DNA of 35,080 nucleotides from Ligilactobacillus salivarius DSM 20555 = ATCC 11741 (GTDB taxonomy: Bacteria > Bacillota > Bacilli > Lactobacillales > Lactobacillaceae), in assembly GCF_001435955.1 (NCBI RefSeq), contig NZ_AYYT01000020.1:1-35080 (forward strand), read 5' to 3'. The position numbers and the translations under genes were made by a program. Below, one piece after another: positions 9,699 through 9,968 of the stretch (position 1 is the first letter of the stretch; each line of letters opens with the position of its first letter). The notes beneath the pieces were generated by a model. The model was given only the letters and a program-made list of their open reading frames with translations, did no database searches and had not been told where the DNA came from.

Positions 9699-9968
9699 TT
9701 GGCAAAAAAATCAAAAATTGCAAAGTACAGAAAGTAACAAATGTTAGTTGCTAAATACGCGGAGATAAGAAGACAATTAAAAGCAGCTCACGATTATGAG
9801 GGCTTACGGAATTTACCTAAAGATTCTAATCCTGTACGTTTAAAAAATAGAGATGAAATAGATGGTCGTCCGCGTGCATACATGCGTAAATTTAAAATGT
9901 CTCGTATTAAATTTAGAGAATTAGCACATCAAGGGAAAATACCAGGTGTTCACAAAGCAAGTTGGTAG
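9699..9968 (+). pseudogene. rpsN: Zinc-independent 30S ribosomal protein S14 paralogue, interrupted by an in-frame stop
   Basis: The reading frame from TTG 9699 gives MAKKSKIAKYRK, then TAA at codon 13, then QMLVAKYAEIRRQL and the rest of an 89-codon S14 without the CxxC zinc motif of the C+ form. Family members have Gln at the stop position, so a single C-to-T change (CAA to TAA) explains it. The frame after the stop is intact to KIPGVHKASW, with the conserved RPRAYMRKF and SRIKFRELA segments. ATG 9741 sits two codons after the stop and could allow reinitiation of a 75-residue product lacking the basic N-terminus. A GAGG ribosome binding site precedes the TTG. It is preceded by Zur-like boxes and followed by a small basic ORF. 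The intact zinc-binding S14 would be elsewhere. Confidence 0.85.

What the first reader, a model, noticed from the sequence alone, without database searches (positions are those of the whole stretch)
9699..9968. Nonsense codon 13 in the Zur-type zinc-independent S14 gene
The frame upstream and downstream of TAA 9735-9737 together encodes an otherwise perfect S14 paralogue; one C-to-T change restores Gln. The zinc-sparing ribosome response may be lost, or the gene may be rescued by reinitiation at ATG 9741, giving S14 without its basic N-terminus. Retention of an intact frame after the stop suggests that the mutation is recent or tolerated.
Basis: partly seen in the sequence, partly recalled or inferred. 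Interest (0 to 1): 0.7.

Follow-up and report, generated by a model that had tools for sequence, protein, structure and literature searches.

The report
Broken zinc-free ribosomal protein S14 gene
This strain of a harmless gut bacterium carries a stop signal early in its spare, zinc-free copy of a ribosomal protein gene that the related strains read here keep whole, so it has probably just lost one of its protections against zinc shortage: a real but ordinary strain-level gene loss.

Summary
Frame 9699-9968 encodes a zinc-free (C-) S14 of 89 codons with an in-frame TAA at codon 13, 9735-9737. The window is a contig of a Ligilactobacillus salivarius megaplasmid. Among the data held, the stop is private to this assembly: 33 L. 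salivarius plasmid records match the locus; I read 26, and 26 of 26 have an open 89-codon frame with the same TTG start. Outside one recombined patch, the nearest strain (2D) differs at 7 positions in about 24.5 kb, one inside codon 13. The gene shows past purifying selection (dN/dS 0.058-0.095), a promoter overlapped by two Zur-like boxes, and a zinc-linked small-protein gene behind it. The only other S14 found in the genome is the short zinc-binding form. Most likely this is a recent strain-level loss of the zinc-sparing S14. Rescue from ATG 9741 is possible but unsupported: its ribosome-binding site is unremarkable and it would drop the basic N-terminus shared by long and short S14s. A base-calling error cannot be excluded without reads. 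Interest is low.

The parts
9627..9655 (+). Sigma-70-type promoter of rpsN: TTGACT, 17-base spacer, TATCAT with TG before it
   Evidence: 10 of 12 matches; 4 sites found in the region against 3.8 expected from shuffles, so the match alone is weak; its overlap with the Zur-like boxes supports it
9636..9658 (.). Zur-like box 1, over the promoter spacer and -10
   Evidence: 18 of 22 positions of the recalled B. subtilis Zur consensus, second best plus-strand site in the 35-kb window (third best 15)
9657..9679 (.). Zur-like box 2, core GTAATGATTAC at 9663-9673
   Evidence: 19 of 22, best site in the window; the same core lies upstream of the zinc-free S14 (or of its operon) in 6 of 8 other genus loci
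9687..9691 (+). Shine-Dalgarno TGAGG for the TTG start
   Evidence: duplex -9.0 kcal/mol
9699..9968 (+). rpsN (zinc-free, C- type S14), 89 codons, TTG start, interrupted by a stop at codon 13
9735..9737 (+). Premature TAA, codon 13; absent from 26 of 26 other L. salivarius copies read
9741..9968 (+). Open 75-codon remainder starting at an internal ATG; possible reinitiation product
   Evidence: Shine-Dalgarno energy -5.1 kcal/mol, matched or beaten by 27% of 802 ATGs in the window
9988..10095 (+). Small ORF of 35 codons, RsaX20_sORF family ('putative metal homeostasis protein'), second gene of the presumed operon, intact, with its own strong Shine-Dalgarno
   Evidence: NF038026, 61.7 bits, cut-off 30; -12.5 kcal/mol
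10099..10144 (+). Terminator-like hairpin behind the small ORF
   Evidence: -23.4 kcal/mol, z -7.96; the scan, limited to loops of 3-8, found no terminator

Best explanation
The locus is the Zur-controlled unit rpsN2-sORF of the L. salivarius megaplasmid, whose first gene encodes a zinc-free S14 that replaces the zinc-binding S14 in new ribosomes when zinc is short. In this strain one recent substitution has made codon 13 a stop. Translation from TTG 9699 should end after 12 residues, so full-length zinc-free S14 is not made and ribosome assembly depends on the zinc-binding S14 alone. Shown here: the stop, its absence from the other copies read, no other zinc-free S14 in the assembly, the promoter architecture, past purifying selection. 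Inferred: Zur control, loss of product, and a growth cost only under severe zinc shortage (by analogy with B. subtilis and streptococci).
For: Stop and frame. Absent from 26 of 26 copies read, which form 12 distinct intact coding haplotypes. Nearest strain 2D: 7 differences in about 24.5 kb outside one recombined patch; of these, 2 are private to the window (one is the stop) and 5 to 2D when judged against AR809 and LPM01, with UCC118 where covered. Only one other S14 in the genome, short and zinc-binding. dN/dS 0.058-0.095 against five other copies. Promoter and boxes. Patchy presence in the genus, 9 of 26 genomes. Literature, passages seen: the Zur regulon of Lactobacillaceae includes rpsN2 (PMC3616900); B. 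subtilis rpsNB mutants still grow, linearly, under severe zinc limitation (PMC5007448); S. agalactiae lacking rpsNb is slowed in zinc-restricted medium but not in rich or zinc-replete medium (PMC11580457).
Against: No reads, transcript or protein data: a base-calling error or a passage mutation of the sequenced culture cannot be excluded. The remaining 75 codons show no further decay, which fits recency but also continued use. The stop lies three bases before an in-frame ATG, so some product may be made. The 11-base Zur core is not enriched in the genome (9 sites, reversed control 15).
Confidence: 0.66

Rival explanations
1. The stop is an error of sequencing or assembly, or a passage mutation of the one sequenced clone; the strain as isolated has the whole gene.
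For: One base in one draft assembly of 62 contigs; 26 of 26 other copies read lack it; reads could not be examined.
Against: Only 2 window-private differences in about 24.5 kb against strain 2D outside the recombined patch, both substitutions, no private indel there, so this stretch shows no sign of a poor consensus; completeness 99.99, contamination 0.07.
Confidence: 0.17
2. Ribosomes ending at codon 13 restart at ATG 9741, three bases on, and make a 75-residue zinc-free S14 that still assembles, so the response is kept at lower yield.
For: The stop is followed after three bases by an in-frame ATG; the Pfam S14 domain lies in the remainder (22-74 of 75); no further decay of the frame.
Against: The Shine-Dalgarno of ATG 9741 is ordinary: -5.1 kcal/mol, equalled or bettered by 27% of 802 ATGs, against -9.0 for TTG 9699. 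The lost residues are the basic N-terminus: the motif is kept in 80 of 80 zinc-free S14s of other species (one search pattern was built on it, so the count is biased) and in all 21 short zinc S14s fetched from the genus. The ATG is in all 27 L. salivarius copies, so it did not arise to rescue the gene.
Confidence: 0.13
3. The TAA is read through by a suppressor tRNA or leaky termination and full-length protein is made.
For: The frame is open on both sides.
Against: A strong ochre suppressor would be costly, since TAA ends many genes (general knowledge); the tRNA genes of the genome were not examined.
Confidence: 0.03
4. The stop is a regulatory or programmed feature of the gene.
For: None beyond its presence.
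Against: Absent from 26 of 26 copies read in the same species and from 80 of 80 loci of other species, which are open from start to end.
Confidence: 0.01

Closest known systems
B. subtilis rpsNB (zinc-free S14, Zur regulon, 'failsafe' for new ribosomes)
   Same: Long S14 without the zinc ribbon beside a zinc-binding short S14 in the genome; Zur-like box over the promoter. PMC5007448 and PMC4324032 (passages seen) describe the B. subtilis gene as Zur-regulated.
   Different: The copy here has a stop at codon 13; it sits on a megaplasmid with a small-protein gene behind it; its zinc response is untested.
L. salivarius megaplasmid rpsN, e.g. strain 2D NZ_CP047413 and UCC118 pMP118 NC_007930
   Same: Same place and neighbours, same promoter stretch and TTG start; 2D differs by one base in the frame.
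   Different: Those copies are whole.
rpsN.2 / rpsNb of streptococci and its absence in oral commensal streptococci (PMC12707111, PMC11580457; passages seen)
   Same: Zinc-free S14 is a variable part of the zinc regulon; commensal species screened there lack it.
   Different: There the gene is absent as a whole and control is by AdcR; here it is a point nonsense allele under Zur-like boxes.

Membership tests
Zinc-free (C-) long-form uS14 paralogue | S14 domain without the two CXXC pairs, long form with the central insertion | tested here: met
   NF006477 over cut-off; type-Z model NF005974 below its cut-off (63.9 against 77); no cysteine in the frame
Zinc-free (C-) long-form uS14 paralogue | A zinc-binding S14 elsewhere in the same genome | tested here: met
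   C34:49741-49887, short form with two CXXC pairs
Zinc-free (C-) long-form uS14 paralogue | Whole reading frame from start to stop | tested here: not met
   stop at codon 13; met in 26 of 26 other copies read
Zur regulon member | Zur box overlapping the promoter | tested here: met
   18 and 19 of 22 (recalled consensus), next best 15; promoter. But the 11-base core alone is not enriched in the genome (9 sites, reversed control 15)
Zur regulon member | A Fur-family zinc repressor in the genome | tested here: inconclusive
   two Fur-family genes; which one is Zur was not settled
Zur regulon member | Derepression when zinc is short | not testable with these tools
   needs expression data
Strain-level pseudogene (nonsense allele) | Disabling change absent from close relatives and derived | tested here: met
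Strain-level pseudogene (nonsense allele) | No functional product | not testable with these tools
   needs protein data

The most novel reading that the evidence does not exclude
The stop has split the gene into a 12-residue leader and a 75-residue zinc-free S14 translated by termination-coupled restart, giving ribosomes a working S14 without the basic N-terminus that the other S14s compared here keep.
Probability: 0.08. Interest if true: 0.5.

Novelty: new member of a known kind. Interest (0 to 1): 0.2.

Why it matters
It gives a natural strain of a gut commensal in which the zinc-sparing S14 branch is probably switched off while a ZnuA-like uptake gene with a Zur-like core before it (by eye) and two Fur-family regulators remain; it is one more hint that this branch is dispensable in commensals. 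It does not change the picture of the zinc-sparing ribosome response.

Tried and rejected
A species-wide stop and a regulatory stop were rejected because 26 of 26 copies read are open. Counting the 11-base core over the genome gave no enrichment (9 sites against 15 for the reversed control); only the longer box, its place and its recurrence in the genus support Zur control. Other assemblies of the same strain could not be seen: the G collection holds one genome per species, and the tools say that records of the window's own genome, or of one very near it, may be left out. The cap for metagenome scans was 0. Searches for print on this allele: (12 papers; salivarius + megaplasmid + rpsN: 0 papers; 2 papers; 9 papers), seen as listings; none of the listed titles or abstract openings concerns a broken rpsN in L. 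salivarius. That covers one open-access library only. One search gave a reinitiation paper (PMC4648390, passages seen), but it is on eukaryotic translation and is not used as support. tRNA genes were not examined. No structure prediction was run: it would not tell whether a product is made.

Full report
OBSERVATION. One search shows the region and its translation: from TTG 9699 twelve codons, TAA at 9735-9737, then 76 open codons to TAG 9966-9968. Everything after the stop from ATG 9741 is a 75-residue ORF that hits the S14 family strongly (PF00253, E 1.8e-26 in the genome search, 6.8e-27; NF006477 96.2 bits, cut-off 77). The frame has no cysteine, so none of the zinc-ribbon pairs.

WHERE IT IS. 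The window is contig 13 of a 62-contig, 1.98-Mb assembly. By DNA it is a Ligilactobacillus salivarius megaplasmid: 33 PLSDB records match the first 25 kb, all Ligilactobacillus, 18 of them covering at least 80% of it in one place, the best (strain 2D, NZ_CP047413, horse isolate) at 99.9%. UCC118's pMP118 carries the same locus.

COMPARISON ACROSS STRAINS. In the more sensitive search of 551 bases, 80 records match, 33 of them L. salivarius; the other 47 are other genera at 60-90% identity. I fetched 26 of the 33; the 7 left out (H46-H52) are badger isolates listed with the same cover and identity as the two badger records I read, and their rows name rpsN. In 26 of 26 copies the frame is 89 codons, open, and begins with TTG. 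They form 12 distinct coding haplotypes; the window is the thirteenth. Strain 2D differs from the window by one base in the frame, and that base is inside codon 13. Over the aligned stretch 28-25135 the window and 2D differ at 32 positions, 25 of them packed into 244-566 (a recombined patch); the other 7 are six substitutions and one indel. Judged against strains AR809 and LPM01, and UCC118 where covered, 2 of those 7 are private to the window (the stop, and a missense at 16930) and 5 to strain 2D. So the stop is derived, recent, and in a stretch with few private differences.

WAS THE GENE IN USE? With codon 13 and the start left out, dN/dS between the window copy and five others is 0.058-0.095, which says purifying selection until lately. 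The comparison crosses recombined alleles: against AR809 and LPM01, 500-base bins between 7,000 and 10,500 differ by 0.4 to 9.5%, as do bins beyond 22,500, while most bins between are under 1%; UCC118 is divergent over much of 7,000-15,500. So rpsN is in a divergent stretch but not the only one.

CONTROL REGION AND OPERON. A promoter TTGACT-17-TATCAT with TG before the second hexamer lies at 9627-9655 (such sites are expected by chance, 4 found against 3.8). Two Zur-like boxes at 9636-9658 and 9657-9679 score 18 and 19 of 22 against a B. subtilis consensus that I recalled; the next best plus-strand site in 35 kb is 15. The bare 11-base core is not enriched in the genome (9 sites against 15 for the reversed pattern), but one of the other 8 sites lies 13 bases before an ORF that by eye is a ZnuA-like zinc-binding protein, with an ABC ATPase ORF after it; the flanking genes of one further site were listed and are not obvious zinc genes. 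In the 8 other genus loci with a zinc-free S14, 6 have the core upstream, the nearest 21-132 bases before the S14 start (in one, L007, it precedes the small ORF that leads the unit), and the other 2 have none within 300 bases but follow what reads as the end of a ZnuA-like gene (by eye). In 80 loci of other species 20 have the exact core within 250 bases; Streptococcaceae use AdcR instead (PMC3616900, passages), so fewer are expected. The same paper lists znuABC, zur and rpsN2 as the Lactobacillaceae Zur regulon. Behind rpsN is a 35-codon ORF of the RsaX20_sORF family, 'putative metal homeostasis protein', then a terminator-like hairpin at 10099-10144. A relative of that small ORF lies in the fetched stretch of 18 of 88 zinc-free S14 loci of other species, 4 of 8 in the genus and 14 of 80 outside it. 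In S. aureus RsaX20 is preceded by a Zur motif (PMC5826253, passages), and in S. agalactiae a gene annotated 'putative metal homeostasis protein' rises with rpsNb under zinc restriction (PMC11580457, passages).

WHAT THE CELL HAS LEFT. The genome has two S14 genes: this one and a short zinc-binding one with both CXXC pairs. Of two L33 genes one has four cysteines and one three; the single L31 has none. Two Fur-family genes are present. So no second zinc-free S14 stands in. In the genus 9 of 26 genomes searched have a zinc-free S14, counting this one; 17 of 26 show none (one of the 17, G013, gave no S14 at all, probably an assembly gap). Presence is therefore patchy between species.

HOW IT MOST LIKELY WORKS. 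Shown: a stop at codon 13 in a gene otherwise preserved and whole in the other copies read. Inferred: translation ends after 12 residues and no useful S14 is made. From B. subtilis (PMC5007448, passages) rpsNB belongs to the last wave of the zinc response and mutants lacking it grow linearly under severe shortage; from S. agalactiae (PMC11580457, passages) loss slows growth only when zinc is restricted. I expect the same here, a conditional defect.

REINITIATION. The TAA is followed by three bases and an in-frame ATG, so restart is possible. Against it: pairing of the region before ATG 9741 with a recalled 16S tail gives -5.1 kcal/mol, equalled or bettered by 27% of 802 plus-strand ATGs in the window, while TTG 9699 has -9.0 (5%) and the small ORF -12.5 (0.6%). 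The ATG is in all 27 L. salivarius copies, but a methionine at that residue is in 0 of 56 of the other-species proteins tabulated (24 of 80 were left out there, 23 for a cysteine in residues 41-60 and 1 for its length of 101). The residues that would be lost are the basic stretch present in 80 of 80 other-species copies (one search pattern was built on this stretch, so the count is biased), in the frames of the 8 genus relatives (in L012 the start itself is unclear), and in all 21 short zinc-type S14s fetched. The short form lacks the central insertion but keeps this N-terminus, so the 75-residue form is not simply a natural short S14. Polarity on the small ORF is possible since Rho is present, but that ORF has its own strong ribosome-binding site.

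VERDICT. A correct and careful observation of an ordinary thing: a private nonsense allele in a conditionally useful gene. Interest 0.2.

Noticed in passing
window 7578-9512 (-): The divergent neighbour is labelled 'TetM/TetW/TetO/TetS family tetracycline resistance' in most of the public records listed, but it misses the NCBIfam resistance cut-offs by far (377.9 against 775 bits, and 260.8 against 1100). It looks like a divergent EF-G-like translation GTPase of the megaplasmid, and the label is doubtful.
   Followed up: partly
window 9988-10095: RsaX20_sORF small protein next to zinc-free S14; a relative lies in the fetched stretch of 18 of 88 zinc-free S14 loci of other species, in one genus locus (L007) upstream of S14 behind a Zur-like core. 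Its function is unknown; the linkage suggests a role in the zinc response.
   Followed up: partly
window about 7000-10500: Allelic divergence between L. salivarius strains rises to several per cent in bins around rpsN, and again beyond 22500, while most bins between are below 1% against AR809 and LPM01; two allele groups of rpsN (window, 2D and the badger isolates read, against the rest) point to recombination.
   Followed up: partly
window 244-566: 25 of the 32 differences from strain 2D are packed here, in and just after the PTS IIA gene: a recombined patch.
   Followed up: no
window 25135 onward; strain 2D record 126516 onward: The alignment to strain 2D ends at 25135; 2D carries a site-specific integrase and phage-like genes there, while the window has a GHKL-domain protein and a LytTR response regulator at 27364-29464.
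   Followed up: no
G024 (locus L012): This genus relative gave only a zinc-free S14 and no zinc-binding one; either an assembly gap or a genome that lives on the zinc-free form, as reported for S. pneumoniae in PMC11580457 (passage).
   Followed up: no
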